From positions 1-32,245 of the IMG/VR virus record IMGVR_UViG_3300028548_005718: a stretch of 32,245 bases of DNA. The stretch is one strand, 5' to 3'. The notes below the pieces were generated by a model. That model was not told the DNA's origin and did no database searches. It saw only the letters and a program-made list of their open reading frames with translations. Positions 6,512 through 29,083 of this stretch are shown in pieces. The DNA comes from a virus. A program made the translations under genes and the position numbers. Position 1 is the stretch's first letter. Each line of letters begins with the position of its first letter.

Positions 6512-6512
6512 T

Positions 6513-6671: not shown

Positions 6672-6733
6672 GTGTTTGTATTATATGCTTTGAAGGGAGC
6701 AGCAAAACCACCCCCAAACAAAACACAATGTTA

Positions 6734-7285: not shown

Positions 7286-7306
7286 TCGTCTGGTTTTTAG
7301 ATAGTT

Positions 7307-7326: not shown

Positions 7327-7342
7327 TACTAATGATTAATTT

Positions 7343-8281
7343 TTAGCTGTAAAAAACAACTTGAGAAGGCTGAACAATTGCAACCGCAGCAGAGCCTCGA
7401 AGCACTACTCTTGAATTTTGAGACCCGTCAATCGTTGACATGTCCAAAATAGATGCTTGTAAAAGCTCGCTATATAGCGAAGATCCGAACACTAGGTCCT
7501 CTTTTCGAGCTGCAAACATATCCGTACTTGTTAAGCCTGGACAATGAACAACTGGAATTCCTAAAAAGAATAATTTTTGTGAGCCGTTGTACCACATTTG
7601 TCGCTTTCCGTCAATTCCCTCAGTTGCATTTGAAGAGTTAACAGCTCCAAAACCTGCTAATTGAGCGATGTATGATTGATAAATTGATGTGCTTACAAAA
7701 ATTGAAAGACTTTCGTCACCATATACAGCGTTTGGAATTGCAGAAACTACCTTTTGTAATTCAGTAGTGACATTAGCTTCAGTAATTGCAGATTTTGCTA
7801 CATCAATAATATCATTGTCTGCTGCTGCTAAAGTTTCAAATCCGTCAAAGGGTAAATTTCCGGCAGTTGTTCCCGTCCAGATTGCAGATTCTACGGCCTC
7901 AGAAGTTTTTTCAACTACGTGCTCAAGGATAAAGTCACCAAAAGTTTTTGGAAGACCAGATTTTACTCCTTTCATTTGTAAACTTTCCCATCTGCTCAAG
8001 AAATTTTTGCTGCAAAGTTCCATGTTTATTTGGATTTCCTTTGGCTCGAGAATTACTTCGCTTGTTGTGAGAGTTCCAGTACTTGTAAAATCACAAGTTC
8101 CCGGCTTTAAAAGATTATTATTGGAGCCAATAACTTGAATTACTTCTTTATATTGAATGTTGTCTCTGATGTCGATTGCTCCAGAGGCTAGAGTTTTTCC
8201 AGAAAGCAAAGCTGCCGATACGTAACCTGACGCGGCCTTCCCCGTGAATGAACTATTTATTGTATTGTTACTAGTTGCCAT
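7343..8281 (-). CDS. Major capsid protein (HK97-fold)
   Basis: 312 aa, the usual size for a processed or short HK97-type capsid subunit. Features: a flexible N-terminus (MATSNNTINSSFTGKAASGY), an E-loop-like strand region around NIQYKEVIQVIG, a helix-rich centre (FGDFILEHVVEKTSEAVESAIW, the spine-helix type), and a C-terminal P-domain-like end with FGSSLYSELLQASILDMS and RVVLRGSAAVAIVQPSQVVFYS. The order upstream is protease, scaffold, decoration-like protein, then this gene. This identifies the head-shell gene even without a database match. A hairpin follows the gene. Confidence 0.82.
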   Translation of the reverse strand: MATSNNTINSSFTGKAASGYVSAALLSGKTLASGAIDIRDNIQYKEVIQVIGSNNNLLKPGTCDFTSTGTLTTSEVILEPKEIQINMELCSKNFLSRWESLQMKGVKSGLPKTFGDFILEHVVEKTSEAVESAIWTGTTAGNLPFDGFETLAAADNDIIDVAKSAITEANVTTELQKVVSAIPNAVYGDESLSIFVSTSIYQSYIAQLAGFGAVNSSNATEGIDGKRQMWYNGSQKLFFLGIPVVHCPGLTSTDMFAARKEDLVFGSSLYSELLQASILDMSTIDGSQNSRVVLRGSAAVAIVQPSQVVFYS

Positions 8282-8306
8282 AGTATTTTTTTTATATTAT
8301 TATTAA

Positions 8307-8726
8307 TTATGCTTGAGACGCCCAGATTCCAACTCCGCCGCTCACGTACCACTCAGTTAAGGCTACCGCTTTAATTGTGACAAAGTCGCCTTTGTTCGCA
8401 GTTGCTTTAGTGTTGATGAAATCTTTGTTTACAACACCGCTAGCCACTACGTCCGCCGCTGCGTTTGCAATAGTTCCGTGGAACGCATCCGCTGCGTCAG
8501 GGGATAGGGTGATAATATTGTTCCCATCTGCTCCGGTGTTTCTGAATGTATATTCAGCACCTATGTTGTGAGCTTCAATTTTTGGTAGCGATATGCTTAA
8601 TGCATCCGTTGCCACATTGTACTCCTCACCAGCTCCATTTGAATCTACTGATACAGAAACTGCAATTGTATTTTGCTTTGAGCGAGCTCTTAGCACATCG
8701 TTTGATGTATATTTTAAATCTGACAT
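8307..8726 (-). CDS. Possible capsid decoration protein
   Basis: 139 aa, small, Ala/Thr/Asn-rich and predicted all-beta (NTIAVSVSVDSNGAGEEY, IGAEYTFRNTGADGNNIITL, NKGDFVTIKAVALTEWYV). It has no membrane segment. Its position between scaffold and major capsid genes is where many phages place the head-stabilising decoration protein. The role is inferred from size, fold and position only. It is separated from the capsid gene by 25 nt and from the scaffold gene by 11 nt. Confidence 0.55.
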   Translation of the reverse strand: MSDLKYTSNDVLRARSKQNTIAVSVSVDSNGAGEEYNVATDALSISLPKIEAHNIGAEYTFRNTGADGNNIITLSPDAADAFHGTIANAAADVVASGVVNKDFINTKATANKGDFVTIKAVALTEWYVSGGVGIWASQA

Positions 8727-8737
8727 TTTTTTAGTTT

Positions 8738-9316
8738 TTAGTTTTTGTAAATCATTTCTCGTATTCTCTGCAATTGAGAGCTTACATTGTCATTGTGATG
8801 ACTTCTGTGAGACGACAAAGCCTCTGGGTTGTGTGCTATGGGCTCAACTACTTCTGAACTCATTTCAACCTCTTCAACTTTTTCAACCTCTTTAGGAGCT
8901 TCCTCTTTGCTTAGATCTTCTTTTTCGAGAATCGATTTCATTTCCTCGATCATGGCTTTCACTTCTTCAAGCTCTTCCTTTGTTGCGTATTCTTTTTCAT
9001 CTGCCGCTTCGACTTCTTCCTCTGGAGCTTCTTCTGCTGGAGCTTCCTCTGCTGGATCTGCGTCTTTGACTTCTGAAATAATACCCTCACTTTCCACAAC
9101 TAGAATTCTAGAGTCTTCAAGAATGTACTCTCCTTCGGGCATTGGAATAGCCTCCCCGTCTTCGCTTTTGATGAATACCTCTGAATCTTTTTCAAGGCTT
9201 TCAAATTCTATCTCGGTCCCATTTTCAAGCTTCATGCTTGCCAATTGGACCTTTTCCTCCGACATCTCGATTCCGAGAACGTCTTTGATTTGGTTTACAA
9301 TTTCGATTGCTTTCAT
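8738..9316 (-). CDS. Probable capsid scaffold protein
   Basis: 192 aa. The N-terminal third is a small ordered domain (EIVNQIKDVLGIEMSEEKVQL ... GEYILEDSRILVVE). Then follow an acidic Ala/Pro/Glu repeat (EEAPAEEAPEEEVEAADEKE), a coiled coil (KEELEEVKAMIEEMKSILEKE) and a short basic tail (SQLQRIREMIYKN). An acidic linker, coiled coil and basic C-terminal hook are the usual build of phage scaffolds that chaperone shell assembly and are later removed by the head protease. It precedes the capsid gene. A 26-bp element found only twice in the window ends 25 nt upstream of its start. Confidence 0.7.
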   Translation of the reverse strand: MKAIEIVNQIKDVLGIEMSEEKVQLASMKLENGTEIEFESLEKDSEVFIKSEDGEAIPMPEGEYILEDSRILVVESEGIISEVKDADPAEEAPAEEAPEEEVEAADEKEYATKEELEEVKAMIEEMKSILEKEDLSKEEAPKEVEKVEEVEMSSEVVEPIAHNPEALSSHRSHHNDNVSSQLQRIREMIYKN

Positions 9317-9341
9317 TTTTTAAAATTTGTTATATGTATAT

Positions 9342-9367
9342 AACGAATCAGGAAATCGATTTGGGTC
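9342..9367 (-). promoter_or_regulatory. 26-bp late element, copy 1
   Basis: Perfectly identical to 18703-18728 in sequence and orientation. It contains the 10-bp palindrome AAATCGATTT (9352-9361 region) and ends 25 nt before the scaffold ATG. I see no vegetative Bacteroidetes -7 box (TAnnTTTG) next to it. Best reading: a phage late promoter or activator site. Confidence 0.6.
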
Positions 9368-9383
9368 ATATTTTATGAACTTT

Positions 9384-9524
9384 TTACACTTTTCCAACTC
9401 CTTGGGCCTGCATTTGTCCAGTGCAACACTTAGGGTGATATTTCTTTTTATCTTTACATAAACAGCCCCTGTTCCCTCCCTTGGGTGTTAACCTGGACAT
9501 GGACTCATATTTTTTATTCGACAT
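9384..9524 (-). CDS. Small Cys-rich conserved phage protein (46 aa)
   Basis: ATG at 9524 lies inside the end of the protease gene, and TAA is at 9384-9386. The motif GNRGCLCKDKKKYHPKCCTG followed by QAQGVGK (C-x-C ... C-C) matches a tiny family I recall from many Bacteroidetes phages. Four cysteines in this spacing suggest zinc binding or a disulfide knot. It lies between protease and scaffold, so a head-assembly or virion role is possible; no function is known to me. Confidence 0.72.
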   Translation of the reverse strand: MSNKKYESMSRLTPKGGNRGCLCKDKKKYHPKCCTGQMQAQGVGKV

Positions 9525-10116
9525 CTTTCAATATTTTAGTGATTGATTTAATAAAGTCCTGGGCTGCCGTTTCTTCTTTTAAGGTCTTGTCTTTTGGCCT
9601 CGATGACATACGGTCCGAAAAAAATGCCTCAATACTAAAACCGGAGACCTCTTTGTTTTGCACTTTTTCCCAAACGTCATCATTAGAACACTTCACGGAA
9701 ACCATCCAAGTCCCAACAGGAACGTCAAGGCCGTAGTGCCTGCTTTTATCAACTTCACTTTCCACGATCCAACTTTCGCAAACCGTAAGGCCTTCGAGTT
9801 TTATATCATGTTCGAGCGTGCTTTCTGATTGGTTGCCGTTTATAAAAAACAACTCCGATGCTTTGCGAATGGTCTCCTTTGAAAAGAAAATGTAATAATC
9901 TTCATCTTCATTCTGACCTTTGCGGAAAATTGGCTTGTTCGGGACTAGGGCTGCGCCGAGTAGCAATCTTTTTTCTTTGTCTTGTTCGGCGAATTTAAAC
10001 TCCTGGCTTTTTAAGGCGATGAATTTTTCCTCAGTGGCTGGACTTGAGACTACCGAAATGGCAGTGATGCCCATGTCTTCACCGTTTTCATCTAATACTA
10101 GTTCTACTATTTTCAT
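9514..10116 (-). CDS. Prohead protease, XkdF-like (peptidase S78_2)
   Basis: 200 aa. The pattern fits the XkdF-like serine protease domain: GAALVPNKPIFRKG (54-67), DYYIFFSKETIRKA, LEHDIKLEGL with the likely catalytic His103, CESWIVES, YGLDVPVGTWMVSVK and VSGFSIEAFF with the likely nucleophile Ser161. Such enzymes cut the scaffold and capsid N-termini during head maturation. It sits just upstream of scaffold and capsid genes, as expected. The C-terminus (after 170) is a short helical tail. It overlaps the 46-aa Cys-rich gene by 11 nt. Confidence 0.82.
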   Translation of the reverse strand: MKIVELVLDENGEDMGITAISVVSSPATEEKFIALKSQEFKFAEQDKEKRLLLGAALVPNKPIFRKGQNEDEDYYIFFSKETIRKASELFFINGNQSESTLEHDIKLEGLTVCESWIVESEVDKSRHYGLDVPVGTWMVSVKCSNDDVWEKVQNKEVSGFSIEAFFSDRMSSRPKDKTLKEETAAQDFIKSITKILKDVE

Positions 10117-10127
10117 GTTTTTTTATT

Positions 10128-11828
10128 TTATCCTATTGATGCACTTTCTATTATTCCACGATCCAGAGCCTGACCGGTTGAAACGTCACCGCTTACAACA
10201 TAAGCCCGTGTTGGTGTTTTATCTTGGCCGTTTATGGCTTGAGCAATTTGACTCCCTTGAGAGCTTCCCACAACATTGAACGCAGGTGGAGCAGAGGCCG
10301 AAGCTGAGACCCTTGGCATTGATACATTTCCACCGCCACCGCCGCCAACTCCTTTTGTTGTTCCTTTAGCCGCTTTAACTGCTGACTTAATAGCTGAGAA
10401 TATCCCAACCGCTTGACCTGCAAAAGCTAATAAAAGAGGAACGTTTTGTGGAAAACCTGCCGCTGCTGTTTTGGCGAAACCTGCTGAAGTATCAACTCCA
10501 GCCTCTGCGGCTTTCATTGTAATCTTTTGAATGGTTTCTTTGGCTGCTGCAATCTGTTCTTTTATTCTCATTGCCTGCTTTGCTATAAATAAAGCCTTTC
10601 CGATTGCGGATTCTTTTCCGGCGATACTTATTATAGCGTTAAGGTTTTCGTACATAGCCGCACGCTCTGCCGCCTTTCGGGCTAACTCTTTTTTATGGGC
10701 TACGTCTCTCTTTATTTCATCTTGACCTTCTTGATCGTCTTTAGTTTTCTTGTCTTTAGCTGCATCATCTATGATGGCTTGAAGCCCGTCTTTCCGTTCT
10801 TGTTCTAGGGCGTTTGTGTTTGTTAGTTGTTCCGCTCTAAAGCCCGTCACAGCCGCCTCAACGTCTGCAATCTCTCGTTTTTTGTCTATTACTGCGATTT
10901 GAAGATCAAGGTTTTCCTTATCTAAAGCAAGGGCCGCCTCTGCTGCGTTGAGCTGCGTTTGAGCGTTTGACTTCATGGCTTTCTCTTGTCTGTCTAAAAC
11001 AAGACCCAGCTCTTTGTTGGCTGCAATCCTTTCGTCTATTCCAAGAGTGACGTCATCTCTGATCGCTCTTTGGAGTTCCGCTTCTTTATCGTATTGCTGA
11101 AGTAGTAAAGCATTTTGAGCCTCTGCAAGTTTAGATTGTTTGTTTAATTGGGTTAGGCTTGCCGCTGCCTTTAATGTGTTTGATGAATAATCTGAAATTG
11201 ATTTTCCTGCTTTGACTGCTGTATCTGCTATTTTATCAAATGATCCATCGACTCCGGTCAAAACGTCGACGTATTCTTTGCCGGCCATCTTTGCGGCTTC
11301 TATTGCACCTTCCCAATCTCTTTGAAATGCCTTTTTAATTGCTGTACCTAAAAACCCAAGCATATCAAGAGTACTCTGAATCCTCTCAATAAAATTCTTT
11401 TGTATTGCTTTGCCTAGATTTTTAATTGATTGCAAAGGGTCATCAAATATTGATTTAAATGAGCTAACAATTCCGCCGACATTGGTTTGAATAAACCCAA
11501 AGAAGTCATTAAATACAATTTGAAGCGAGTTCATGGCTGTGTCTAAAGCATCAACCACTTTCTGGTTGCCTCTAAAAAGTTCAATTACTTTCTCTAGGAT
11601 AATAGACCCAAGTTTAAAAGCTCCACCAGTAAGGACCGCACCAACACCGGTGAACGCTTTACCTAAGCCCTGGACGCCTTTGCTGGTTTTCTTGGCTTCT
11701 TCTTCAAGTTTTTTCATTGAGGCCGCCGCCTCTTGTTTTATTTGAGAGAGCTCCGTTGTGACATTTTCAAGATCCTTTCTAAGTTTTCCGAACTCAGCTT
11801 TTAAATCAATTGTTATTTGTTCAGCCAT
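10128..11828 (-). CDS. Tail tape measure protein
   Basis: 566 aa. It has an N-terminal coiled coil (about 5-50: LRKDLENVTTELSQIKQEA), a hydrophobic Gly/Ala-rich region (about 55-90), and long heptad helices (about 225-400, QNALLLQQYDKEAELQRA and similar). An Ala-rich hydrophobic patch (about 410-490), a poly-Gly linker and the tail RAYVVSGDVSTGQALDR complete it; this last motif is typical of Bacteroidetes tape measures. The protein sets tail length. By the lambda rule of about 0.15 nm per residue, a tail of roughly 80-90 nm is implied. No lytic transglycosylase or peptidase motif is visible. Confidence 0.8.
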   Translation of the reverse strand: MAEQITIDLKAEFGKLRKDLENVTTELSQIKQEAAASMKKLEEEAKKTSKGVQGLGKAFTGVGAVLTGGAFKLGSIILEKVIELFRGNQKVVDALDTAMNSLQIVFNDFFGFIQTNVGGIVSSFKSIFDDPLQSIKNLGKAIQKNFIERIQSTLDMLGFLGTAIKKAFQRDWEGAIEAAKMAGKEYVDVLTGVDGSFDKIADTAVKAGKSISDYSSNTLKAAASLTQLNKQSKLAEAQNALLLQQYDKEAELQRAIRDDVTLGIDERIAANKELGLVLDRQEKAMKSNAQTQLNAAEAALALDKENLDLQIAVIDKKREIADVEAAVTGFRAEQLTNTNALEQERKDGLQAIIDDAAKDKKTKDDQEGQDEIKRDVAHKKELARKAAERAAMYENLNAIISIAGKESAIGKALFIAKQAMRIKEQIAAAKETIQKITMKAAEAGVDTSAGFAKTAAAGFPQNVPLLLAFAGQAVGIFSAIKSAVKAAKGTTKGVGGGGGGNVSMPRVSASASAPPAFNVVGSSQGSQIAQAINGQDKTPTRAYVVSGDVSTGQALDRGIIESASIG

Positions 11829-11964
11829 TTTTTAATCGTGTTAATTTTACCATTTCCTTAAAACTTTCTGGAATCTTGTTTTTGCCTAAAGCGACATCAA
11901 TATGCTCGCCTTTTATTTTGTTTTCTGATGCTATCTCTAGCAGTTCAATGATCTGTTTTATCAT
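11821..11964 (-). CDS. Small hypothetical protein (47 aa) upstream of tape measure
   Basis: ATG at 11964 overlaps the upstream stop as ATGA; TGA at 11821-11823 overlaps the tape measure start by 8 nt. The product begins MIKQIIELLEIASENKIKGE and is a short charged helical protein with KIPESFKEMVKL near the end. The double overlap makes translational coupling likely. Position before the tape measure suggests a tail-assembly helper, but this is inference. Confidence 0.55.
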   Translation of the reverse strand: MIKQIIELLEIASENKIKGEHIDVALGKNKIPESFKEMVKLTRLKNG

Positions 11965-14126
11965 ATAATATCAATTGAGGTGTCTATTGTGATTCTGGTG
12001 CTGTCTATTGTGGCTAAAGTCATGTCAATAGTTAGGGCCAAATCATTGTCATTATTTACTGCCTTGAGATTTGAAACAACATTTATAAGCTCAAGCTCCG
12101 AAAGACCAGTTTCAAAGTTTGTTGTTATAGAATTAATCTTGTAAATGTTTTCAAACACAATGATTTTATCCTGAAGCTTTAAGTTTAATATGATGCTTAT
12201 AGGTAAATAAGCTTTAAACTTTGTTAGGCGTCTGCTTAGGCTAAAGGTTTCAACTATATAGTTTTTATAGTACTGATTAAAGAGTGTTTTATCGAAAACG
12301 CCTCCAGTGTATTCGTTTGGCTCGGCTGCAAAGTTTAAATTTTTAGAGTCCGTTAATGCAATTGAATTTGATGGGACGTAATAATTAGAAAGGGATTGCT
12401 TTGTCGAGGCAGTTGGTAGGACCGAGATATTGTTTCCGGTGTTTTTAATTGGATAAAACAAAAGAGGCTTTCCAATTAAACTGTTTTTGTCTTTATCTAC
12501 CGACCAGCCCCATTGTACCGATGTAGCTGTGGAACCATTGTAAAGGCGTTCATATTTCTGATGCTCAAAAGGAAGTTTGACAGTGTAAACACTACCGTCA
12601 TATTTTGCTCCTGCATTATACTGCTCACGACCCCAATCTTTATAAAAACGTGCTAAGTGATCCGCTGCTAAAAATGTGCTAGTTCCCTCATATTTAAAAT
12701 CGATTTCTTTAAATGGGAGTAATGCCTCGACCTGACTGGACTTTTTATCAAGGTGCTCAGTAATATTGTAAGTTTGTGTACTACTCTGATAGTAAGAATC
12801 TAGAGTCATGACCTTGATTTCTTCTGTTAATTCATCATAATAGGCTGTTAAATTGAACATTTTAAAAAGGCCGGTTAATAGGTCTAGGACACCAATGTCG
12901 GGAACTTGATTCCCAGTAATAAAGTTAAATTCAGATGCTACATTGCAAGACCCTGCAAACGAAATGACATCTCTGTCCTGGTCGCCTCTTAATCTTTTAA
13001 CTACTCCTGTTAAATTGTAGCTTGACACTGTTGCGGAACTGATCTCAAACTGAAAGGTGCCAGCTCCTATGTCTGGAATTTCGTCATTCGTTAAAACTGT
13101 TTGAGTGCCTGAAAGGTTTTCCTTTCTTAAATAGATCACTCCATTTCTATACATTGTGAAAGTGTATCCGCTCGAGGATGTTTCAATCCTTAAATTCATT
13201 CTATAGTCAAAAATCTGGGCCTGTGTTCCAAGGGATATATCAGAAGCCGAAAAGCCCATCCCTGCAATTGCTGGAGCGTTTACTGAGCTGAAGCTTGGGA
13301 CCATGTTATTAAAAATAGAGGCAGAAAGTTCGCCGTCTTCTTTAACGCCTCCCTTTTTCTTATGCAGCCACAAATAAAGATTATAATAATCTAGGTTTGT
13401 TTTATTGAAAAAGTCGGTGCTAAACTTTATACTTTTAAAAACATCGTTTGGCCTTGTCGCTGTGTTGTAATAGTTTTCAATTGCTTTGATTATTACGTGA
13501 ATCCTCACAGCCGGCTTTAGCTGGTCGTATAAAACGCCGTGAACGTTAGATCCATAATTGAGATTAAAACTCCCTGTGGTGTCCTCATTTGAATTGTAGT
13601 ACAGTCGATCGGTGTGAGTTATTAGCGGCACAATAATAGCGTCGTCGATTTCCTCTCCTAGATAAACATCCTTTCCGTCTTGTAGGTAGTTTATTATATT
13701 GGTTGAATTGTAGCTAAATTGTAGCTGTTCCTTTGATAGAAAATCTAAAGTGCTGAGTTTATCATTTCCGATAACATCTTTTAGGTTGATCGTGTTGCCG
13801 TAAAAGGTTATTTTATATGTGTTCCCTTTGTTATTGTTTAGGTCCGCACTCTCTAGCTTGATTTTTCCCTTTTTAAAAAGCTTATAATTCAAATGGATCT
13901 CAGCTTCCTTTTTTGTTCGGCCGTCAAAACCTTGAATTGAGCTATTATAAAAGTGTTTAAAAATTTTATTATTCTGCTTCGAACATGGCAGAGAAAATGA
14001 ACGGCTATAGTCTGCAAATATTTTAGAGAAATCTTTAACATTTTGAATGGTCTGAGTAAGTGAAACACTTTCATCCTTAAACATTTCAACCTGTTCGCCT
14101 TCTATATATAATTGGATGCCAATCAT
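11961..14126 (-). CDS. Tail tip/baseplate-like structural protein
   Basis: 721 aa. The N-terminus has the pattern VSLTQTIQNVKDFSKIFADY followed by SRSFSLPCSKQNNKIFKHFY and GFDGRTKKEAEIHLN, a signature shared by large structural proteins of many flavobacterial phages. The rest is beta-rich with ISNTTNF-type repeats (KINSITTNFETGLSELELI). It may be a distal tail or tail-associated hub protein, because it follows two other tail proteins and precedes the tape measure in transcription. No enzymatic motif seen. The start overlaps the upstream stop (TAATG). Confidence 0.65.
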   Translation of the reverse strand: MIGIQLYIEGEQVEMFKDESVSLTQTIQNVKDFSKIFADYSRSFSLPCSKQNNKIFKHFYNSSIQGFDGRTKKEAEIHLNYKLFKKGKIKLESADLNNNKGNTYKITFYGNTINLKDVIGNDKLSTLDFLSKEQLQFSYNSTNIINYLQDGKDVYLGEEIDDAIIVPLITHTDRLYYNSNEDTTGSFNLNYGSNVHGVLYDQLKPAVRIHVIIKAIENYYNTATRPNDVFKSIKFSTDFFNKTNLDYYNLYLWLHKKKGGVKEDGELSASIFNNMVPSFSSVNAPAIAGMGFSASDISLGTQAQIFDYRMNLRIETSSSGYTFTMYRNGVIYLRKENLSGTQTVLTNDEIPDIGAGTFQFEISSATVSSYNLTGVVKRLRGDQDRDVISFAGSCNVASEFNFITGNQVPDIGVLDLLTGLFKMFNLTAYYDELTEEIKVMTLDSYYQSSTQTYNITEHLDKKSSQVEALLPFKEIDFKYEGTSTFLAADHLARFYKDWGREQYNAGAKYDGSVYTVKLPFEHQKYERLYNGSTATSVQWGWSVDKDKNSLIGKPLLFYPIKNTGNNISVLPTASTKQSLSNYYVPSNSIALTDSKNLNFAAEPNEYTGGVFDKTLFNQYYKNYIVETFSLSRRLTKFKAYLPISIILNLKLQDKIIVFENIYKINSITTNFETGLSELELINVVSNLKAVNNDNDLALTIDMTLATIDSTRITIDTSIDII

Positions 14127-15118
14127 TATCTTATGTTGTTGATTTTGTCAAACGCAAAGGCAAAGTCTACTGTGTGATTGATCAGATTATCATTTAATGA
14201 GTTTTTAAATGTGAACGATTTGCTGTTTGGAATTACAGAGAGGGTTTTCCCCTCGTATCTGATCCACACGTTTTCACTCAAAAACATCTCTTCGATTGCT
14301 GAGTTGAAATCCTCAAGAACAAATCCGGTGTTTAATGTGATGGTAGTGTTTGCGTTTACATTATACCGTTCCCTTTGCCCTTTGCTAGTTGAATAGGTAA
14401 GGTTTGCGGAATCAATTATATTTCTGTTGAACGAACTATCAGAAACATTAAAGCTTTCAACAGACTTCTTAAAAAAGTAAATGTCCTCAATGGCCCCGTA
14501 ATGATTTATGAAGGAACATTTAATCGGTGTGAAGGTCGGCTCACATACTTGGACAACCTTGACCGTTTTGACAACGGTTGAGTCATTTGTTGCATATATT
14601 ACAACATCATTAGTTGTGTTGGCCGGTACATTTATATACTGAATTTTTTGGTTTGAATTTCCATTGTCAGTGACCTGAGTTGTTGCTCCACCGATTACAT
14701 ATTTTCCAACACCCTCGGCAAAGATTGGAATCTTTCCAACCGTTCCCTCCGGAAGATAGATTGTACTTTTTGTCATTAAGGCCCCAGTGCTTAATTGTGG
14801 ATTGATGCCGTCCTCAAATTCACCATATCCATCAAAGGCCAAATAGGTGACTGGTGTTTCTGTTTGTGAAATCGGATCGTCGTTTTCGTCATAATATCTA
14901 ATTGATACAGTGACCCAAACCGTGCTAGATGAATTCTGATAATTATTATTAAAATCACTAGAAATGTAATCCCTCACAAGTTCAGCGATTTCAATTAAGA
15001 TGTTTGCTCTGTTTGAAATTCGCTCCCTTTGTATTGTGTATTTTTTATCTTCAGAACTATAGCTGTCTGCTGTTCCTTTATAAATATATAAGTCTACAAT
15101 TACTCTATTTAGTGCCAT
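14126..15118 (-). CDS. Tail structural protein (330 aa)
   Basis: 330 aa. It begins MALNRVIVDLYIYKG, with ANILIEIAELVRDYI and a VTVSIRYYDENDDPIS strand region, then a central beta domain. The C-terminal third carries CSFINHYGAIEDIYFFKKS and WIRYEGKTLSVIPNSKSFTF, which is a pattern I know from Bacteroidetes phage tail genes paired with the 721-aa type protein. It has no membrane segment. Lying between the adhesin-like gene and the baseplate-like gene, it is probably part of the tail tip. Confidence 0.6.
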   Translation of the reverse strand: MALNRVIVDLYIYKGTADSYSSEDKKYTIQRERISNRANILIEIAELVRDYISSDFNNNYQNSSSTVWVTVSIRYYDENDDPISQTETPVTYLAFDGYGEFEDGINPQLSTGALMTKSTIYLPEGTVGKIPIFAEGVGKYVIGGATTQVTDNGNSNQKIQYINVPANTTNDVVIYATNDSTVVKTVKVVQVCEPTFTPIKCSFINHYGAIEDIYFFKKSVESFNVSDSSFNRNIIDSANLTYSTSKGQRERYNVNANTTITLNTGFVLEDFNSAIEEMFLSENVWIRYEGKTLSVIPNSKSFTFKNSLNDNLINHTVDFAFAFDKINNIR

Positions 15119-15127
15119 GTTTAAAAA

Positions 15128-16645
15128 TTAAAGTTGAATGTCTCCTTGTGGTCCAGTGCCTGAGGTTTGACATGTTTTACTGTGTACCTCTGTGACTGTT
15201 CCGTTGTTGTTTATTCTTACAACTTTAAAGGTCATCCCTGGACCAGCCATCGGATTTTGAGTTGCTGCTGTAATTGCATAAAACAAACCGCCTCCTGGAA
15301 ATTTTCCTCCACCTCTGCAAATGATTGTTCCATTTAAAGAGGATCCAATCCCATTTGATAAATTGATTGTTGTAGTTGCTATTACAGCTGGACCATAATT
15401 TCCATCACATAAAGCTCCGATTGATGAAACTCCCGACGATAAATGAGCTTCAAATGAACCACATGGATTTACTGATGGTTCCTGTTTTATTGATAGCGTG
15501 CAACTTTTTGATCCTGCATTTGAGTAGCCACTTGGAACAGTAAAGGTGATTACTACATTTCGACCATCAAAACTCGGGGACGTGTTTGCTGGAAAATTAG
15601 TTGTGAAATTTGTGATTGCTAAATTTGTGCTTGAGAGCCTAACGTTGCCCTTTATTGTTGTACCGTTAGCCAAAATCCTCCAGCCGCTAAAGACTAAAGT
15701 CTCGGCGTTGGTGACTGACTCTCCTGGACATGCTGCCGCTTTCAAGCCTGTACCATTTTGTACAATTGAAACTGGACACCTACTTGATAAAACTCCAGAG
15801 TTTGAAAACCCGTTTGGGATTGTGACGTCAAAATATAAAGTGATGTTTTGGTCTGCTGTTCCTGTGTTGGCCGCTACTGTTGTAATTGCTGACCCTCCTG
15901 CCGATGCTGCGTAAATATTTCCAACGATACCAAGACCGGTTGGTTTGACGATTGTTTGTCCGTTCTGAGAGATTGACCCCCCAGATAATCCGGCCGTTGT
16001 ACAGCTAAAAGTCGTGCAGTTGTTTATAGTGATTGAAACGTCCTGTACTGCCGTGCAACTGTCAGCGGCTTGAAATGCTTCGACATAAATCTTTTTGGTC
16101 CCGCAGGTGCTAAGTGCCGAAAGAATCAAATTATTCCCAGAGATTGAGGCATTTATGAAACTAGGATGGTTGTTTATTACTCTATAGCCTGAAATTGCTG
16201 AGTCATCACCAGGGTTAAACTTTCCATTGACTGCAATCGTGGCCGTCCCTGTTGAGTTGGTTAATGTCTGAGCTGAGATCGTTCCAGAAGCAGTTGGGCA
16301 ATTGTCGTTTGATGAAGGGGTGTCTACAGCTGCTTGTTTGGGCTGGGTGAAAGTCACATCACATAGAATGGTCCCAACTAATGTATTGCTGTAATCTGCT
16401 GGAATTTGTATTGTAAGTGTAAGTGTTCTATTTGTTGGCGTTCCAGTTGGTCCAATTGCTGCGAAATTGTCAACACTTTGGCCGACAATAGTTCCTTTTG
16501 ATAAGGTTGGAAGGGTAATAATACCACCACTAGAAACAACAAAGCCCGATGCTCCAGCAATTGCACAAGTAAACAACTCGGATGGCTGTACTGGCTCAGT
16601 AAGATTTAAATAAAAGGGACTGCGGGCGTTTATTTTTGTGCTCAT
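15128..16645 (-). CDS. Repeat-containing Ig-like tail/adhesin protein
   Basis: 505 aa, all-beta. It starts MSTKINARSPFYLNL, an opening I associate with flavobacterial phage tail proteins. Three related units end with an IP/VP-x-G/D-Y/F-SN motif followed by a Cys and a hydrophobic strand: about 81-100 (IPADYSN), 276-296 (IPNGFSN) and 370-389 (VPSGYSN). Between them lies a Cys-containing domain (CGTKKIYVEAF). Such tandem Ig-like domains often decorate tails and bind surface glycans. The start overlaps the upstream stop (ATGA). Confidence 0.62.
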   Translation of the reverse strand: MSTKINARSPFYLNLTEPVQPSELFTCAIAGASGFVVSSGGIITLPTLSKGTIVGQSVDNFAAIGPTGTPTNRTLTLTIQIPADYSNTLVGTILCDVTFTQPKQAAVDTPSSNDNCPTASGTISAQTLTNSTGTATIAVNGKFNPGDDSAISGYRVINNHPSFINASISGNNLILSALSTCGTKKIYVEAFQAADSCTAVQDVSITINNCTTFSCTTAGLSGGSISQNGQTIVKPTGLGIVGNIYAASAGGSAITTVAANTGTADQNITLYFDVTIPNGFSNSGVLSSRCPVSIVQNGTGLKAAACPGESVTNAETLVFSGWRILANGTTIKGNVRLSSTNLAITNFTTNFPANTSPSFDGRNVVITFTVPSGYSNAGSKSCTLSIKQEPSVNPCGSFEAHLSSGVSSIGALCDGNYGPAVIATTTINLSNGIGSSLNGTIICRGGGKFPGGGLFYAITAATQNPMAGPGMTFKVVRINNNGTVTEVHSKTCQTSGTGPQGDIQL

Positions 16646-17226
16646 GAGGTTGTGAATTCTTTGAATTTATCTTTGATATCCAAGGCAAAAGCTTGAACTA
16701 GTTTTGGAGGGAGTTTTTTAAAGGCGTTATCAAATGACTTTGTAAAAAAGAACTTGGCCGGTATTCCTGAGAGATATACGCTCCTGGATATTACATATAT
16801 CAAACCCTTTCTTTTTTCACCAACGCCTCGAATTCCTTTCTTGACTAGATATTTATTTATTCCGCTTTTGATGTACCCTTTTCCAGTTCCAGATCCATAC
16901 TTAAAAGGGCTTTTTGTGTTCTTGTTTCTTTGTTTACCATACCAAAGAGCACCCTTAGGAAGATCAAAAGGATCTTTCCCGGTGACACCCTGGTCAATGT
17001 ATTTGGCATAGTCTACATCTTTCATAAATGGAAACTTGACCGAGATGCTGTTTTCCATTGTCTCAACCTCGTACTTAATCGAATTGTAAAGATTCCCTTT
17101 TGATGGCTTGTTGCTTTGAAACATGCTTTTTCTTAGGAGTCTTTTTTGAGACTGCTTAACAACATCCTTTCCAAACTGATTTAGTGCCTGGTCTGTAAAC
17201 CTCATAAAGTCGCTGAGCTTTCTCAT
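16642..17226 (-). CDS. Neck/tail-completion protein (HK97 gp10-like)
   Basis: 194 aa from ATG at 17226, which overlaps the previous stop (TAATG). A GTG two codons upstream (17232) is less likely. The protein is basic: MRKLSDFMRFTDQALNQFGK, then a helix QKRLLRKSM, a strand region SISVKFPFMKDVDYAKYIDQG, the loop with DLPKGALWYGK, and ISRSVYLSGIPAKFF ahead of a C-terminal helix. The order helix-strands-YAxYIDxG is typical of gp10-like or virion-morphogenesis proteins that complete the head-tail joint. Placement by pattern, not by search. Confidence 0.6.
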   Translation of the reverse strand: MRKLSDFMRFTDQALNQFGKDVVKQSQKRLLRKSMFQSNKPSKGNLYNSIKYEVETMENSISVKFPFMKDVDYAKYIDQGVTGKDPFDLPKGALWYGKQRNKNTKSPFKYGSGTGKGYIKSGINKYLVKKGIRGVGEKRKGLIYVISRSVYLSGIPAKFFFTKSFDNAFKKLPPKLVQAFALDIKDKFKEFTTS

Positions 17227-17681
17227 TAGCACTTAGTCATGTTATTACTTAGGTTAACTGTGAAATCACAACTCAAGCCGCTAAGATTGTTTTCAAACCG
17301 TTCCTTGAATGGAGTGCACGAAAACGATCCGGCTAGTTCATAGGTTCCGGAATAACTGTTCGACCTTGACATTACAGCCTGAAGCCTTGCAGCTAGATTC
17401 AGCATGTTGTTTATCACATCCATTTCATTATCGTTGCCTCTTAAACTATCGACAACGCTGTCCTTTGAGAAATCAACAATGTCCATGAATAGTATGCTCA
17501 TACCTAAAGAGATCTGATTTGTTTGAATGTCAATACTCTCAATCATTATGTGGGCCAGTGGGAAAATGGTGATCTTGTTCAAATCAACCTCATAGATGTC
17601 TCCTTGGGTCACTGTATTACAAAAAGGCTCTGCAATGAGTGAGGCTTTTATGTCATCAATTACTTTAAAATATGTGTTCAT
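17226..17681 (-). CDS. Putative tail terminator/neck protein (151 aa)
   Basis: 151 aa. It begins MNTYFKVIDDIKASLIAEPF and contains IFPLAHIMIESIDI, GMSILFMDIVD and NMLNLAARLQAVMSRS, ending with a strand pair (LSGLSCDFTVNLSNNM). This alternation of a first helix, strands with a conserved P-LAH-IME, and a central helix fits a small tail-completion protein known from Bacteroidetes phages. Its place between the chaperone and the gp10-like gene supports a neck function. Confidence in the exact role is low. Confidence 0.55.
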   Translation of the reverse strand: MNTYFKVIDDIKASLIAEPFCNTVTQGDIYEVDLNKITIFPLAHIMIESIDIQTNQISLGMSILFMDIVDFSKDSVVDSLRGNDNEMDVINNMLNLAARLQAVMSRSNSYSGTYELAGSFSCTPFKERFENNLSGLSCDFTVNLSNNMTKC

Positions 17682-17956
17682 ACTGTTTTAATAAATATAG
17701 GTGTGAGACTTTCATCCTCTTCAATTTTTATTTCGATAAACCTTTCGAGCCATTCGAGAGCCTGGTCGAAATCAAATCTTGGCTCGGCTTCAATAACACA
17801 ATCCAGGGCAATAAAAAAATCATATATCGCAACCTTTGGCTCTGAAGCTGTCACGCCAATTAAAGCCCTCTCAAATCCCTCTGATAAAACAATCGACTCG
17901 TTTTCATTTAAAAAAGATCTATCGTAAAGCGAATCAATTATCTGTTCTTTTTGCAT
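17678..17956 (-). CDS. Small acidic hypothetical protein (92 aa)
   Basis: 92 aa, acidic, helical: FERALIGVTASEPKVAIYDF, then DQALEWLERFIEIKIEEDES. ATG at 17956 lies inside the end of the frameshift extension of the tail chaperone, and its own stop overlaps the next ATG (ATGA). The pattern is usual for a co-translated assembly protein. I do not recognise the family. Confidence 0.6.
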   Translation of the reverse strand: MQKEQIIDSLYDRSFLNENESIVLSEGFERALIGVTASEPKVAIYDFFIALDCVIEAEPRFDFDQALEWLERFIEIKIEEDESLTPIFIKTV

Positions 17957-18197
17957 TGTTCATTTGTCTTTCTAATTCATTTTTTTCCTTTTCAAACACC
18001 AACCATGTGAGGCAGGTCTGAAGGTTTAGTTTTTCAACAGCATCAAACTTTGTCACATCGCCTGAAGCGAGGCTATACAATGACGAATAGAATCCCCATT
18101 TTTCGGCGAATGCTTGACTATTTGATAGTAATCCTGTTTGAGTTTCTCCTGCGAATAATTGAGGATACGACTCGTGAGTTCGTCTTTTAAATTCAAC
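17934..18197 (-). CDS. Frameshift extension of the tail assembly chaperone
   Basis: An open frame in the -1 register relative to 18053-18682. It enters at the T10 run (minus strand) and stops at 17934-17936, giving 87 codons after the shift. It holds FAEKWGFYSSLYSLASGDVT and LTWLVFEKEKNELERQM, which I recognise as a conserved Bacteroidetes phage sequence. The frame is open back to 18257 but has no ATG before the conserved part, so independent initiation is unlikely. The fused protein would be about 249 aa (162 + 87), the counterpart of lambda gpGT. Confidence 0.68.
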   Translation of the reverse strand, partial: VEFKRRTHESYPQLFAGETQTGLLSNSQAFAEKWGFYSSLYSLASGDVTKFDAVEKLNLQTCLTWLVFEKEKNELERQMNNAKRTDN

Positions 18198-18682
18198 AAA
18201 AAAAAAACAGCACCCAAAGCCACATCCAAAGGCATTAAAGCCATGAAGGTTTCCTTGTCAGCATTATAGTCCTGCAATAGATATGATCCTTTAAACTCCT
18301 CCTTAATGGGTCTGTATAGCACCCCAAGGGCCTTGTCCATCGTATCCCAATCGTTAGCATAAGAATCAACATCTAAAAACTCCCCGAAGGTCATATCGGA
18401 TAGCTTAGGATGAAACCCGAACTTGATTCCAGCCATCTCAAATGTATTGGTGAGCTTTGGCGTTTGATCAAATAGCTCGGTCAACATCCCGGTCACTTTT
18501 TTAATTGAGCTGTACTTGAAATTATCAACGTGCTTTAGTGGAACACCGCAAAAGATTTCAATCATTTTCTTATGTAGGAAGTCCTGGTCAATGTCATCCG
18601 TTAGGATTTTACTAAAGCGCTGGTATTGTCCGAGCGTTATCTCAGATAATTTGTTCGGCACTGTTAATTTAAATTCTTGCAT
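18053..18682 (-). CDS. Tail assembly chaperone, unshifted product
   Basis: 209 aa. N-terminus MQEFKLTVPNKLSEITLGQY then QRFSKIL, followed by EIFCGVPLKHVDNFKYSSI, FEMAGIKFGFHPKLSDMTFG and YRPIKEE. These match a Bacteroidetes phage family I know next to tail genes, best read as the gpG-like chaperone. Before the end lies VFFLLNL, encoded by GTT TTT TTT TTG; slipping back one base there leads into the 17934-18197 frame. The unshifted end (NYSQEKLKQDY ... IRHCIASLQAM) also looks native. The 26-bp late element lies 20 nt upstream of the start. Confidence 0.65.
   Translation of the reverse strand: MQEFKLTVPNKLSEITLGQYQRFSKILTDDIDQDFLHKKMIEIFCGVPLKHVDNFKYSSIKKVTGMLTELFDQTPKLTNTFEMAGIKFGFHPKLSDMTFGEFLDVDSYANDWDTMDKALGVLYRPIKEEFKGSYLLQDYNADKETFMALMPLDVALGAVFFLLNLKDELTSRILNYSQEKLKQDYYQIVKHSPKNGDSIRHCIASLQAM
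18197..18208 (-). other. Programmed -1 frameshift slippery site
   Basis: On the minus strand this reads G-T10-G, with zero-frame codons GTT TTT TTT TTG. The heptamer T TTT TTG lets both tRNAs re-pair after a -1 slip. A sequencing error in the homopolymer is the main alternative. Confidence 0.6.
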
Positions 18683-18702
18683 TTTGTTTGGTATATATTA
18701 AA

Positions 18703-18728
18703 AACGAATCAGGAAATCGATTTGGGTC
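18703..18728 (-). promoter_or_regulatory. 26-bp late element, copy 2
   Basis: Identical in all 26 positions to 9342-9367 and in the same orientation. It lies in the 54-nt gap between TerL (stop at 18737) and the tail chaperone start (18682), 20 nt upstream of that ATG. The flanks differ from copy 1 apart from general AT-richness, so the identity is confined to the element. Confidence 0.6.
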
Positions 18729-18736
18729 TAGAAATG

Positions 18737-19960
18737 TTATAAAATGTGATATTGTCCAGCATTTGGATTCTTTAATTGATAGCTGACGGCGTATCGAATT
18801 GCATCGATTGCGTGATTATATTTATCCATCGGCGTCGAGCTCTTCTTTTCAAGCCAGGCATAGTTGTTCAGTTCTCGAACTAAAGGAACGCTCTCCGGCC
18901 CGTCGTCAATTATTAGATCGTAATCCTGGAGCAGTGAAATCCCGTAGGTAATTGAGCCCGGACCTTTTATCGCTGGGACAATGTTGCAGGTTGATTTGAG
19001 TTCATGGATCAGTCTGGGCTCTGCGCTATCTGCCACCAATAGGGATTGGCCCACATGCTTGGAATAAAGCTCTCGGAGTTGTGACGTTGTTAATCCAGGC
19101 AAATAGAAACACATCTTTAGATATATGATCCTATTGTTTTTATCAATGCTAGTTTTAACGCAACTATTTTCATCCTGCGAGAATCCAAAATCTGCTCCAA
19201 AAACAGGCGGCGAAACCTCTTTAAACTTTCCGAGCTTCCAATTGCTGAAGATTATACCCTCGGCCTTTTCAATCCAATTCCCTTGAATAACGGCGGCGTA
19301 TCTCTCAGGCCTCCTAAGACGCATTTGTTTTATCTGGTTGACATAACTATCCGAAAGATTCTCAACGTTGTCTAGATACGTTGTGTGGATGTATGAGGTG
19401 TCTCCTTTGCTTGTGTTTGCTCCAGCCTCAACGCCTCGGTCCTCATAAAAGCGTTTATAAATAAAATGCTCTTTTGTGCTTGGGTTTAATAGCAGTATAA
19501 TCCTGTTTTGCCTTTGCTTGCTTCTGACTGATAGATCAATTTTATCAAACGAATCCTGGTCGATCTCTTCGGCTTCCTCCATGCACCAGGTAGTTACGCC
19601 CTGCAATGATTTTAAATTTGCTGTCTGGTCCCCGGAGCTAGTCTTGATGCCTCGAAATATTATCTTGCTACCGTTCTCAATGTTGACGATCTCGTCCCTG
19701 GTAATCCTGAACTTATGATGGAGGTTTAGCATTTCAATCTTTTCCTTAAACTCGGGAATAATTGAAACCGATGCAGATCTCAGCGTGTATCGTGTGAATA
19801 AAATTGTATGTCCAGGTTCTTCATGAATAAGGCCCAAAAGAAACACCCCGGCAAAGAATGACTTTCCTGATCCTCGGCCACCTGTTAAAATAGTGTATCT
19901 AGTATCATTCCAAAAACCTTGATACTTCTCACTAAAATCAATCTTAATCTTCTGATTCAT
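18737..19960 (-). CDS. terL: Terminase large subunit (TerL)
   Basis: 407 aa. The ATPase domain has Walker A GGRGSGKS (27-34), the adenine-side ILFTRYTLRSAS, Walker B WCMEEAEE (125-132) with the catalytic Glu pair, and the coupling motif LLLNPSTKEH. The RNase-H-like nuclease domain has ADFGFSQD (Asp257), LLVADSAEP (Asp311) and HAIDAIRYAV (Asp386). It pumps DNA into the prohead and cuts it. The length and motifs fit the PBSX/Terminase_3 type. It overlaps TerS by 17 nt. Confidence 0.93.
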   Translation of the reverse strand: MNQKIKIDFSEKYQGFWNDTRYTILTGGRGSGKSFFAGVFLLGLIHEEPGHTILFTRYTLRSASVSIIPEFKEKIEMLNLHHKFRITRDEIVNIENGSKIIFRGIKTSSGDQTANLKSLQGVTTWCMEEAEEIDQDSFDKIDLSVRSKQRQNRIILLLNPSTKEHFIYKRFYEDRGVEAGANTSKGDTSYIHTTYLDNVENLSDSYVNQIKQMRLRRPERYAAVIQGNWIEKAEGIIFSNWKLGKFKEVSPPVFGADFGFSQDENSCVKTSIDKNNRIIYLKMCFYLPGLTTSQLRELYSKHVGQSLLVADSAEPRLIHELKSTCNIVPAIKGPGSITYGISLLQDYDLIIDDGPESVPLVRELNNYAWLEKKSSTPMDKYNHAIDAIRYAVSYQLKNPNAGQYHIL

Positions 19961-20294
19961 TTTTCTTGAAGTTGAACAGCGTTCTGAAATCGACAGAGGG
20001 AGCGTCTGAGTTCACGTCGACTGTTTCTTTTGGTTGGCCATATGCTGAATCGAGTATCGCTTTAGTAGCTGCGACGTCCCCTTGTCTGGCCTTTTTAAGT
20101 AGAGCGAAATACATGAGATGCTCTTGACTCATCTGTTGCTGTTCTCTAGTAACTGGATTTGTACCTTCAGAAATTAGATTTAGGATTTCTTTGGCAACAG
20201 TACTTCGATTTCTTGTTCCCTTTGGTCTTCCCTTTGGATTACCAGATTCACCCTTTTGAAATTGATGTTTTTTTATTGGTTGATCTTTACTCAT
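19944..20294 (-). CDS. terS: Terminase small subunit (TerS)
   Basis: 116 aa. The N-terminus FQKGESGNPKGRPKGTRNRS is the DUF5681-type basic motif of many phage small terminases. The centre is helical (LMYFALLKKARQGDVAATKAI) and the end is acidic. TerS recognises the packaging site and hands DNA to TerL, whose gene overlaps its 3' end. It starts 24 nt after the 56-aa gene stop. Confidence 0.85.
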   Translation of the reverse strand: MSKDQPIKKHQFQKGESGNPKGRPKGTRNRSTVAKEILNLISEGTNPVTREQQQMSQEHLMYFALLKKARQGDVAATKAILDSAYGQPKETVDVNSDAPSVDFRTLFNFKKNESED

Positions 20295-22354: not shown

Positions 22355-22478
22355 CCTCTTCGATTTTTAGGTCGATCAAATGGCATTGTAAATTTAAAAA
22401 GGATCTTTATATATTAAACTATATTTTTATTAACAAAACCCTTCAGTTTTATGTAAAAAAAAACCCTAACTATTTAAG

Positions 22479-27213: not shown

Positions 27214-27900
27214 ATGACTACTCCGAACGAAAGATTTTTAGAGCTTTTTAAGAATTTAAACTTATCGATTCCAGAATTTGCAAAAGAATGCGGAATGGAT
27301 TCAAAGGTTAGAACCATTTATAAAATAATTAAAGACAGCCACAAGCCTTCAATTGCAATAATAAGGGAGGTTAGTTTAATTTTTCCAGAGTTTTCTATTG
27401 AATACATACTTTACGGAAACAACAAAAAAGATCATAAAGCAGCACAAATTCAGCAAAAAAATGTCTTGTTTAATGCAAGTTTGACACAACATAACACTAA
27501 CTTTGAAGAGAAGGAACAAAATATGATCAACGGTTTTATTAAGCTAGAGCATGAACTAGTAAGAACATCAAACGCATTGCAGACCACTTTATTGAATTGT
27601 ACAAATCAAATTCAAGAAATGGTTATTCAAAACGCAAAAACAAAAAATGACTTTGAAACTCACCTCGTAGAAGTAAATAAACAGATTGGAGCTCTTGCAA
27701 CCTCACATTTGAAGCTGTCTAATCAGATCATAAAAGTAGAGGCAAAGATTCAAGAAATGCACCACGACAATACAATGGTCGCAATTCAGGCAAAAGAATA
27801 CATCGAAGAGTCGCAAGCATCACATAAAAGAAACCACGCTTTTCAACAGCAAATAATTCCGGATCTCGGAGAGTTTAGAAAGACTAAGAAAAAATCTTGA
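27214..27900 (+). CDS. Lysogeny repressor candidate: HTH plus long coiled coil
   Basis: 228 aa, one of few plus-strand genes. The N-terminal XRE-like HTH (about 5-65) is FLELFKNLNLSIPEFAKECG then VRTIYKIIKDSHKPSIAIIR and FPEFSIEYILYG. Residues about 80-210 are a long coiled coil (LVRTSNALQTTLLNCTNQIQ, KLSNQIIKVEAKIQEM). There is no S24/LexA-type self-cleavage domain, so RecA-driven cleavage is unlikely. It is divergent from the early operon, which supports a repressor role. Its last 17 bases overlap the end of the integrase gene on the other strand. Confidence 0.65.
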   Translation: MTTPNERFLELFKNLNLSIPEFAKECGMDSKVRTIYKIIKDSHKPSIAIIREVSLIFPEFSIEYILYGNNKKDHKAAQIQQKNVLFNASLTQHNTNFEEKEQNMINGFIKLEHELVRTSNALQTTLLNCTNQIQEMVIQNAKTKNDFETHLVEVNKQIGALATSHLKLSNQIIKVEAKIQEMHHDNTMVAIQAKEYIEESQASHKRNHAFQQQIIPDLGEFRKTKKKS

Positions 27901-29083
27901 ACGCTGACGCTGTAATTGATTCCTTATTAATTTTCTTATATTTATTTAATGTCTTCGGATCTCTGATCCCTGTGATCGACATTATTATGTGATCTGGCAT
28001 TGATTTTTCTGCCGCTATAGTTATAAACGTTCTCCTTGCTGTGTGAGATCCTACCATTTGCCAGCGTTGTTTTATTACAACCTCTTTTTTTGCACCATAA
28101 TAGACCGTGTTTTTTATTTCTTCAGTAAAGCCAGCCATCTTACAAATCTTTTGAATGTTTTTATTAAATTTCTGACTTCTAATACTGTTTAAATTCCAAT
28201 CATATTTGTCCAGTAATGTTTTAAGTTTTGGATGTAATGGAATAAAAGAATGGGTTTCCGTTTTTTCTGCTCTCTTAATTATCATGTCGCCCTGTACATC
28301 TGATTTTTCAAAGACTGAGTAATCCGAATAACGTTGCCCCGAATAACAACCAATCAAAAACAGATCCCTGTGTTTTTCTAGCCTTTCATCGAGTTCAAGT
28401 CCCGTTAAGGTGTCAAGGTCCAACTCTGTTAAGGCAATGTCATCAGTCTCAAAAGGTGAGATTTTAATATCTTTAAAAGCCAAGGGAACTTTTACACCTT
28501 TTTTGATGCACCAATTTAAAAACGTTTTGAAAAATCCGAAATTTCTATAAAGTGTATTATCATTTAGTTTGTATTTGCTTCTTAAAAAGACAATAAATTC
28601 CGTTAAAGTATCATTATTTAAATCCGTTAATAATATTTGTTTACCCTTTTCGAATTTTTCGAATTTATCAAATATTCTTGTATAGCTTTTAATCGAATTC
28701 CATTCTATCTCACCAACATTCAAAAGCTCGTCAATGTAAAGATTGGTATAATAATCAACAGATAGATCAACTGGGGCCTTTTCTTCAACATGAAAATATT
28801 CGTTGAGTTGTTTTTTAAGGATAGAAGCCGTCAAAGATTTGCCGTAAAAATCCTTTATTTGTTGGACCTGGTATTCGTATTCTCTTAAAGCCAGAGTTAA
28901 ATCCCTGTTTCTGTCACCTTCTTTTCCTCGCATTACTCGAGGGAAACATTTTTTTTTGTCCCAATTCTTTGGATTTATATTTCGCCCTGTATTGTATTTA
29001 AATCTAGAGGTTTCGCCTGGGATATAAACCTCAAGTCTAATTTGTGCGTTCTCTCTTTTAGGGTGGTCCAATCTAAATGCCAT
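27884..29083 (-). CDS. int: Tyrosine integrase
   Basis: 399 aa. An arm-binding N-terminal domain (about 1-80), SAM-like core-binding domain (about 105-205) and catalytic domain. Catalytic residues: Arg251 in GCYSGQRYSD, Lys274 in RAEKTETHSF, His347-x-x-Arg350 in GSHTARRTF, and Tyr382 in TLNKYKK. The usual second His/Trp in the TGH motif is replaced (TGIRD, Ile373). It should recombine attP with a host site. Its start lies 3 nt from the first of the arm-type repeats, so Int may shade its own promoter. It converges with the repressor. Confidence 0.9.
   Translation of the reverse strand: MAFRLDHPKRENAQIRLEVYIPGETSRFKYNTGRNINPKNWDKKKCFPRVMRGKEGDRNRDLTLALREYEYQVQQIKDFYGKSLTASILKKQLNEYFHVEEKAPVDLSVDYYTNLYIDELLNVGEIEWNSIKSYTRIFDKFEKFEKGKQILLTDLNNDTLTEFIVFLRSKYKLNDNTLYRNFGFFKTFLNWCIKKGVKVPLAFKDIKISPFETDDIALTELDLDTLTGLELDERLEKHRDLFLIGCYSGQRYSDYSVFEKSDVQGDMIIKRAEKTETHSFIPLHPKLKTLLDKYDWNLNSIRSQKFNKNIQKICKMAGFTEEIKNTVYYGAKKEVVIKQRWQMVGSHTARRTFITIAAEKSMPDHIIMSITGIRDPKTLNKYKKINKESITASAFKIFS

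What the first reader, a model, noticed from the sequence alone, without database searches (positions are those of the whole stretch)
17934..18682. Probable programmed -1 frameshift making two tail assembly chaperone forms
Seen: a T10 run on the minus strand (18198-18207) in the reading GTT TTT TTT TTG. The -1 frame after it is open to 17934, lacks any ATG before the conserved part, and encodes KWGFYSSLYSLASGDVT and FEKEKNELERQM, which look like real protein. The zero frame also ends in native-looking sequence. Known: lambda G/GT and many siphoviruses make this pair by a -1 slip. Here the site lies far from the tape measure gene and no chaperone was previously obvious.
Basis: partly seen in the sequence, partly recalled or inferred. 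Interest (0 to 1): 0.85.

Follow-up and report, generated by a model that had tools for sequence, protein, structure and literature searches.

The report
Conserved T-run frameshift in phage gene
A run of ten Ts in a gene of a virus that probably infects marine Flavobacteriia lets one gene make two proteins with different ends; the same trick is kept in over a hundred related viruses, and the pattern suggests that RNA polymerase, rather than the ribosome, does the slipping.

Summary
T10 (18198-18207, minus strand) joins a 209-codon zero frame to a -1 frame ending at 17934. In all 114 homologous loci examined, including the isolate Nonlabens phage P12024L, N-part and C-part lie in the same -1 register with T9 or T10 at the junction; a further scan and a distant clade agree. 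Both frames are coding across the overlap: in 74 non-redundant homologues the zero frame stays open a median 57 codons past the run (about 13 expected), and synonymous divergence roughly halves. So one gene makes two C-terminally different proteins; it is neither sequencing error nor decay. Mechanism: a ribosomal slip is possible, but evidence leans to RNA polymerase slippage. The run is never shorter than nine Ts though a ribosomal heptamer needs seven; no synonymous C interrupts it; no RNA structure or Shine-Dalgarno excess is seen; and in 593 other genes of these phages coding-strand T8+ runs are almost absent in every phase (1 seen, 26.7 expected) while the ribosome-shifty T7 is tolerated. 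Function: tail assembly chaperone-like by architecture, with weak fold support; no detectable homology to lambda G or T. New variant of a known kind.

The parts
18053..18682 (-). Zero-frame ORF, 209 aa, short form (stop 18053-18055)
   Evidence: homologues; PHROG 32199, unknown function, E 3.2e-11
18208..18682 (-). N-terminal domain shared by both forms
   Evidence: conserved in A1/A4; AlphaFold2 model mostly pLDDT 80-94 here
18198..18207 (-). T10 slippage run, GTT TTT TTT TTG in the zero frame; contains the heptamer T_TTT_TTT
   Evidence: T9 or T10 in all 114 homologous loci, in 120 of 120 loci of a degenerate scan and in all 204 distinct site sequences
17934..18207 (-). -1 frame C-terminal part (FFFVEFKRR...KWGFYSSLYSLASGDVTKF...FEKEKNELERQ), end of the 249-aa long form
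   Evidence: AlphaFold2: helical domain, mean pLDDT 76.8
18053..18197 (-). Dual-coded overlap: zero-frame tail of the short form read over the -1 frame part of the long form
17678..17956 (-). Next gene (92 aa); its ATG at 17956 overlaps the end of the -1 frame by 23 bases
18737..19960 (-). Large terminase subunit, directly upstream (context)
   Evidence: Pfam Terminase_3, E 3.3e-34

Best explanation
[quoted passage not shown] The shift most likely happens when RNA polymerase slips on the T9/T10 run and adds one U to a fraction of the transcripts; normal translation of those transcripts gives the long form. The two forms most likely act as a tail assembly chaperone pair, as lambda gpG and gpGT do. 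Shown here: the two-frame architecture, its conservation, dual coding of the overlap, and conservation of a run of at least nine Ts. Inferred: that the slip is transcriptional, the proportion of the two forms, and the chaperone role.
For: 114/114 loci have N- and C-part in the same -1 register with T9/T10 at the junction. Zero frame open a median 57 codons after the slip against 12.8 expected when the -1 frame is recoded synonymously; -1 frame open through the overlap in 74/74 against 0.43 expected. Fourfold-site divergence 0.53 upstream, 0.22 in the overlap. Run length: a scan that allowed 16 synonymous spellings of V-F-F returned 120/120 loci with GTTTTTTTT, all homologues, while GTT is only 34% of Val codons and TTT 78% of Phe codons in these genes. 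204 distinct sites, none under T9; two sites that lost a flanking T have the run moved by one base in the other direction but still T9 (L025, L250). No excess RNA structure up- or downstream (mean z about -0.2 to +0.1); no Shine-Dalgarno-like excess (12/74 against 18% background). In 593 other genes coding-strand T>=9 0 seen, 11.8 expected; T8 1 seen, 14.9 expected, in all phases; T7 in the ribosome-shifty phase 38 seen, 55.5 expected; A-runs much less depleted at length 8 (46 seen, 66.5 expected). Literature: a 9T run conserved among homologues is taken as a sign of purposeful transcriptional slippage (PMC1088944); transcriptional slippage at a U-run yields the long MxiE product (same paper). 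Chaperone role: terminase upstream and tail-type genes downstream; fold similarity to an annotated tail assembly chaperone (prob 0.99, E 8.9e-3) and a tail assembly protein (prob 0.60).
Against: No transcript or protein data. The heptamer T_TTT_TTT is present in every site, so a ribosomal slip is always available, and UUY codons are shifty in E. coli (PMC4066793). Part of the run-length conservation follows from the amino acids of the two frames (I estimate about 9% of lineages would carry a C at the last Phe codon if only codon usage mattered). Avoidance of T8+ runs could also reflect premature termination or pausing. No sequence homology to lambda G/T; the gene is not between tail tube and tape measure genes.
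Confidence: 0.58

Rival explanations
1. Programmed ribosomal -1 frameshifting: two Phe tRNAs slip on T_TTT_TTT, giving the long form from an unchanged transcript, as in lambda G/GT.
For: An in-phase T_TTT_TTT is present in every site; tail chaperone genes of many phages use ribosomal -1 shifts (PMC5009743). UUY codons are good shifters (PMC4066793).
Against: Nine Ts kept where seven suffice; no T_TTT_TTC in 204 distinct sites; no conserved stimulatory structure or Shine-Dalgarno-like element, whereas motifs without stimulators gave only 2.1-10 times background in E. coli; the same in-phase T7 is tolerated in other genes of these phages (38 seen, 55.5 expected).
Confidence: 0.33
2. Assembly or sequencing error in a homopolymer, or a decayed gene.
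For: Homopolymers are error-prone.
Against: Same register and T9/T10 in 114/114 loci and in the sequenced isolate P12024L; both frames under selection.
Confidence: 0.01
3. The C-part is made as a separate small protein by internal or coupled initiation, as the P12024L annotators assumed (gp41).
For: Annotated as a separate gene in P12024L.
Against: No start codon before the conserved part in the window; the -1 frame is conserved right from the run; would not need the T-run.
Confidence: 0.03
4. Phase variation by replication slippage: the run length changes in the DNA and switches forms.
For: Long homopolymers mutate readily.
Against: All sites sit in one register; no locus was found with the C-part in the zero frame.
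Confidence: 0.03

Closest known systems
Phage lambda G/GT tail assembly chaperone pair and similar pairs in other tailed phages
   Same: One gene, two products sharing an N-terminal part, long form made by a -1 shift; sits among tail-type genes
   Different: No detectable homology; located directly after the large terminase gene, several genes before the tape-measure-like gene; slip lies 141 bases before the zero-frame stop codon in the window (about 26 nt on average in the SEA-PHAGES set and 36 nt in the Xu phages, PMC10274946); the overlap is dual-coded; homopolymer T9/T10 and no stimulator
Programmed transcriptional slippage at T9/A9 runs (Shigella mxiE, Thermus dnaX, IS elements)
   Same: Conserved run of nine or ten identical bases; longer product in the frame reached by one extra nucleotide; no stimulator needed
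   Different: Phage structural-type gene; slippage itself not yet shown
PHROG 32199 and PHROG 38404 (Nonlabens phage P12024L gp40 and gp41)
   Same: Direct homologues of the zero-frame protein and of the -1 part
   Different: Held as two unrelated families of unknown function; the junction with T9 shows they are one frameshift gene
Elizabethkingia phage TCUEAP1 gp3
   Same: C-terminal 46 residues match the -1 part (hhalign E 4.4e-5, probability 69%), directly after the large terminase gene
   Different: One uninterrupted frame, 180 aa, no T-run

Membership tests
[quoted passage not shown]
   Comparative sequence evidence only
Lambda G/GT-type tail assembly chaperone | Gene lies between the major tail protein and the tape measure gene | tested here: not met
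   Directly after the large terminase gene, seven genes before the tape-measure-like ORF 10128-11828
Lambda G/GT-type tail assembly chaperone | Sequence relationship to lambda G or T | tested here: inconclusive
   hhalign against single lambda sequences: probability 0.2% and 0.1%; such pairs diverge beyond detection, so this does not exclude membership
Lambda G/GT-type tail assembly chaperone | Fold shared with known chaperones | tested here: inconclusive
   BFVD: annotated tail assembly chaperone, prob 0.99, E 8.9e-3, TM 0.38; tail assembly protein of phage Wanderer, prob 0.60; nothing significant in PDB
Lambda G/GT-type tail assembly chaperone | Short form binds tape measure protein, extension binds tail tube protein; neither in the virion | not testable with these tools
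   needs biochemistry
Programmed transcriptional slippage site | Run of about nine or more A or T, length conserved among homologues | tested here: met
   204 distinct sites, all T9 or T10
Programmed transcriptional slippage site | Such runs otherwise avoided in coding sequence of the same organism, regardless of frame | tested here: met
   T>=9 0 seen against 11.8, T8 1 against 14.9, all phases
Programmed transcriptional slippage site | Transcripts with non-templated bases | not testable with these tools
   no RNA data
Programmed ribosomal -1 frameshift site | X_XXY_YYZ heptamer in phase | tested here: met
   T_TTT_TTT in phase in the sites
Programmed ribosomal -1 frameshift site | Downstream stem-loop or pseudoknot, or upstream Shine-Dalgarno-like element | tested here: inconclusive
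   No excess over shuffles in 74 clusters and no SD-like excess; pseudoknots were not modelled

The most novel reading that the evidence does not exclude
A large family of phages of marine Flavobacteriia makes its tail assembly chaperone pair by programmed transcriptional slippage on a T9/T10 run instead of by ribosomal frameshifting, and in most members the short form carries its own selected C-terminal tail encoded on top of the long form's C-terminal domain.
Probability: 0.4. Interest if true: 0.75.

Novelty: new variant of a known kind. Interest (0 to 1): 0.62.

Why it matters
Two-form tail chaperones set the ratio of assembly factors in tailed phages and, as far as the held literature and my own knowledge go, are made by ribosomal frameshifting. 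A wide family that seems to set the ratio at transcription would be a second way to the same end, as dnaX shows for cells. It also joins two orphan protein families (PHROG 32199 and 38404) into one gene, gives hundreds of environmental phages a candidate chaperone, and supplies a clean natural test of how RNA polymerase of Bacteroidota behaves on T9 runs.

Tried and rejected
Pfam, NCBIfam and PDB sequence searches named no family. Foldseek against PDB and the VIA re-alignment gave nothing significant for either model. One alignment mixing N- and C-fragments (A3) misaligned and was dropped. Flavobacterium phage 6H gp10 (a fold match) has no matching -1 extension at its T-run and was not counted. 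The quick closure of the +1 frame (median 2 codons) looked like support for polymerase slippage but follows from the two coded frames, so it is not used as evidence. Literature searches for a tail chaperone made by transcriptional slippage found none in the held library, nor any paper on frameshifting in phages of Flavobacteriia.

Full report
Observation. The minus strand carries T10 at 18198-18207 in the zero-frame reading GCT GTT TTT TTT TTG TTG AAT. The zero frame runs from ATG 18682 to a stop at 18053 (209 aa); the -1 frame is open from upstream of the run to a stop ending at 17934; the fusion is 249 aa. The window is a 32,245-base virus record.

Relatives. A search with the fusion protein found 30 viral contigs; a profile of the -1 part found hundreds more, of which the best 80 were kept, and three contigs in Bacteroidota genome bins. 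Of annotated phage isolates only Nonlabens phages P12024L and P12024S match over the whole length. In P12024L the two halves are annotated as separate hypothetical genes, gp40 and gp41, and T9 lies at the junction.

Register. In all 114 loci where both halves could be placed by profile, the C-part lies in the -1 frame of the N-part and a T9 or T10 run lies at the junction. Among 74 clusters under 90% identity 63 have T9 and 11 T10. The distant P12024 clade adds 13 loci, all T9. Over 204 distinct site sequences there is none below T9. This rules out an assembly error or a dying gene.

Both frames code. If only the -1 frame mattered, synonymous recoding predicts a zero-frame stop after about 13 codons; the observed median is 57 (range 25-79). 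If only the zero frame mattered, 0.43 of 74 loci should keep the -1 frame open; all do. In pairs of moderate identity, fourfold third positions differ at 0.53 upstream of the run, 0.22 in the overlap and 0.28 after it. The short form's own tail is therefore selected in most of the family. In the P12024 clade the zero-frame tail is only 15-25 codons, so the long dual-coded overlap is a feature of part of the family.

Which machine slips. Both a ribosomal heptamer (T_TTT_TTT, in phase) and a polymerase slippage run (T9 or more) are present. Five lines separate them in part. (1) Length: seven Ts suffice for the ribosome, yet nine or more are always there. In L025 the codon after the run no longer starts with T and the run has gained a T in front; in L250 the codon before has lost a T and the run has gained one behind. 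(2) Purity: a degenerate scan that accepted GTN TTY TTY returned 120 loci, every one GTT TTT TTT and every one a homologue. The last base is the telling one: TTC there keeps Phe in the zero frame, Leu in the -1 frame and a shifty heptamer (UUY codons are good shifters in E. coli, PMC4066793), but cuts the run. From the codon usage I estimate that about 9% of lineages should carry it; none does. Lineages are not independent, so I give no p-value. (3) Stimulators: no excess of structure before or after the run, no Shine-Dalgarno-like excess; without stimulators, E. coli motifs gave 2.1 to 10 times a background near 0.05%. Pseudoknots were not modelled. (4) Avoidance elsewhere: in 593 other genes (545 kb) of these phages, coding-strand T8 occurs once (14.9 expected) and T9 or longer never (11.8 expected), irrespective of phase, while T7 in the ribosome-shifty phase occurs 38 times (55.5 expected). 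A-runs are less avoided at length 8 (46 against 66.5), so mutation by replication slippage, which does not know the strand, cannot be the whole reason. Premature termination on long U-runs remains a possible reason. (5) Precedent: Baranov et al. (PMC1088944) argue that a 9A or 9T run conserved in length among homologues is very likely used for slippage; mxiE of Shigella makes its long product by an added U in a U-run. I put transcriptional slippage at about 0.6 and the ribosome at about a third; both could contribute.

What the protein is. No Pfam, NCBIfam or PDB sequence family matches; PHROGs hold the two halves as families 32199 and 38404 of unknown function. The gene follows the large terminase gene. 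By the window's own proteins, terminase lies upstream in 80 of 106 loci with enough sequence and the 151-aa ORF lies downstream in 81 of 83. AlphaFold2 gives a confident N-terminal domain ending in a long helix in which the slip site lies; the zero-frame tail is of low confidence from residue 170 on. The -1 part is a small helical domain. In BFVD the N-domain matches many unnamed phage proteins, an annotated tail assembly chaperone (prob 0.99, E 8.9e-3) and, weakly, a tail assembly protein. Six BFVD proteins of 226-267 aa match both models, which suggests one-frame relatives (inference from lengths). TCUEAP1 gp3, an isolate's protein in the same place, carries the C-terminal motif in one frame (hhalign E 4.4e-5). 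Lambda G and T show no detectable similarity.

Reading. The best reading is a two-form tail assembly chaperone-like gene. The architecture is that of G/GT, in which the short form coats the tape measure protein and the extension recruits the tail tube subunit (PMC5009743). It is not filed as a member of the G/GT family, because the usual gene position is not met and homology is not shown. A side point: the end of the -1 frame overlaps the start of the next gene by 23 bases (17934-17956), so the amount of shifting could also affect that gene, as reported for spa13 and spa32 in Shigella (PMC5009743); this was not tested.

Novelty. The two-form gene itself belongs to a known kind. New are the conserved T9/T10 run as the device, the evidence for slippage at transcription, the long dual-coded overlap, and the joining of two orphan families.

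Noticed in passing
4150-20294: Unusual gene order on the minus strand: terminase, then tail-type genes, then protease (Peptidase_S78_2, 9514-10116), capsid-type protein and portal (4150-6153); the tail module lies between terminase and capsid/portal genes.
   Followed up: partly
L033:2164-2703: Elizabethkingia phage TCUEAP1 gp3 looks like a one-frame relative of the C-terminal part, in the same place after the large terminase gene.
   Followed up: partly
L120-L235 and other loci, other genes: Coding-strand runs of eight or more Ts are almost absent from genes of these phages, while A-runs of eight are only mildly reduced.
   Followed up: yes
22455-22463: A T9 run on the minus strand in the gap between two ORFs, the only other one of that length on that strand in the window.
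   Followed up: no
27884-29083: Tyrosine integrase gene (Phage_int_SAM_5, Phage_integrase) next to a divergent regulator-like ORF at 27214-27900, so the phage may be temperate.
   Followed up: no
17934-17956: The end of the -1 frame overlaps the start codon region of the next gene by 23 bases, so shifting could influence its translation.
   Followed up: no
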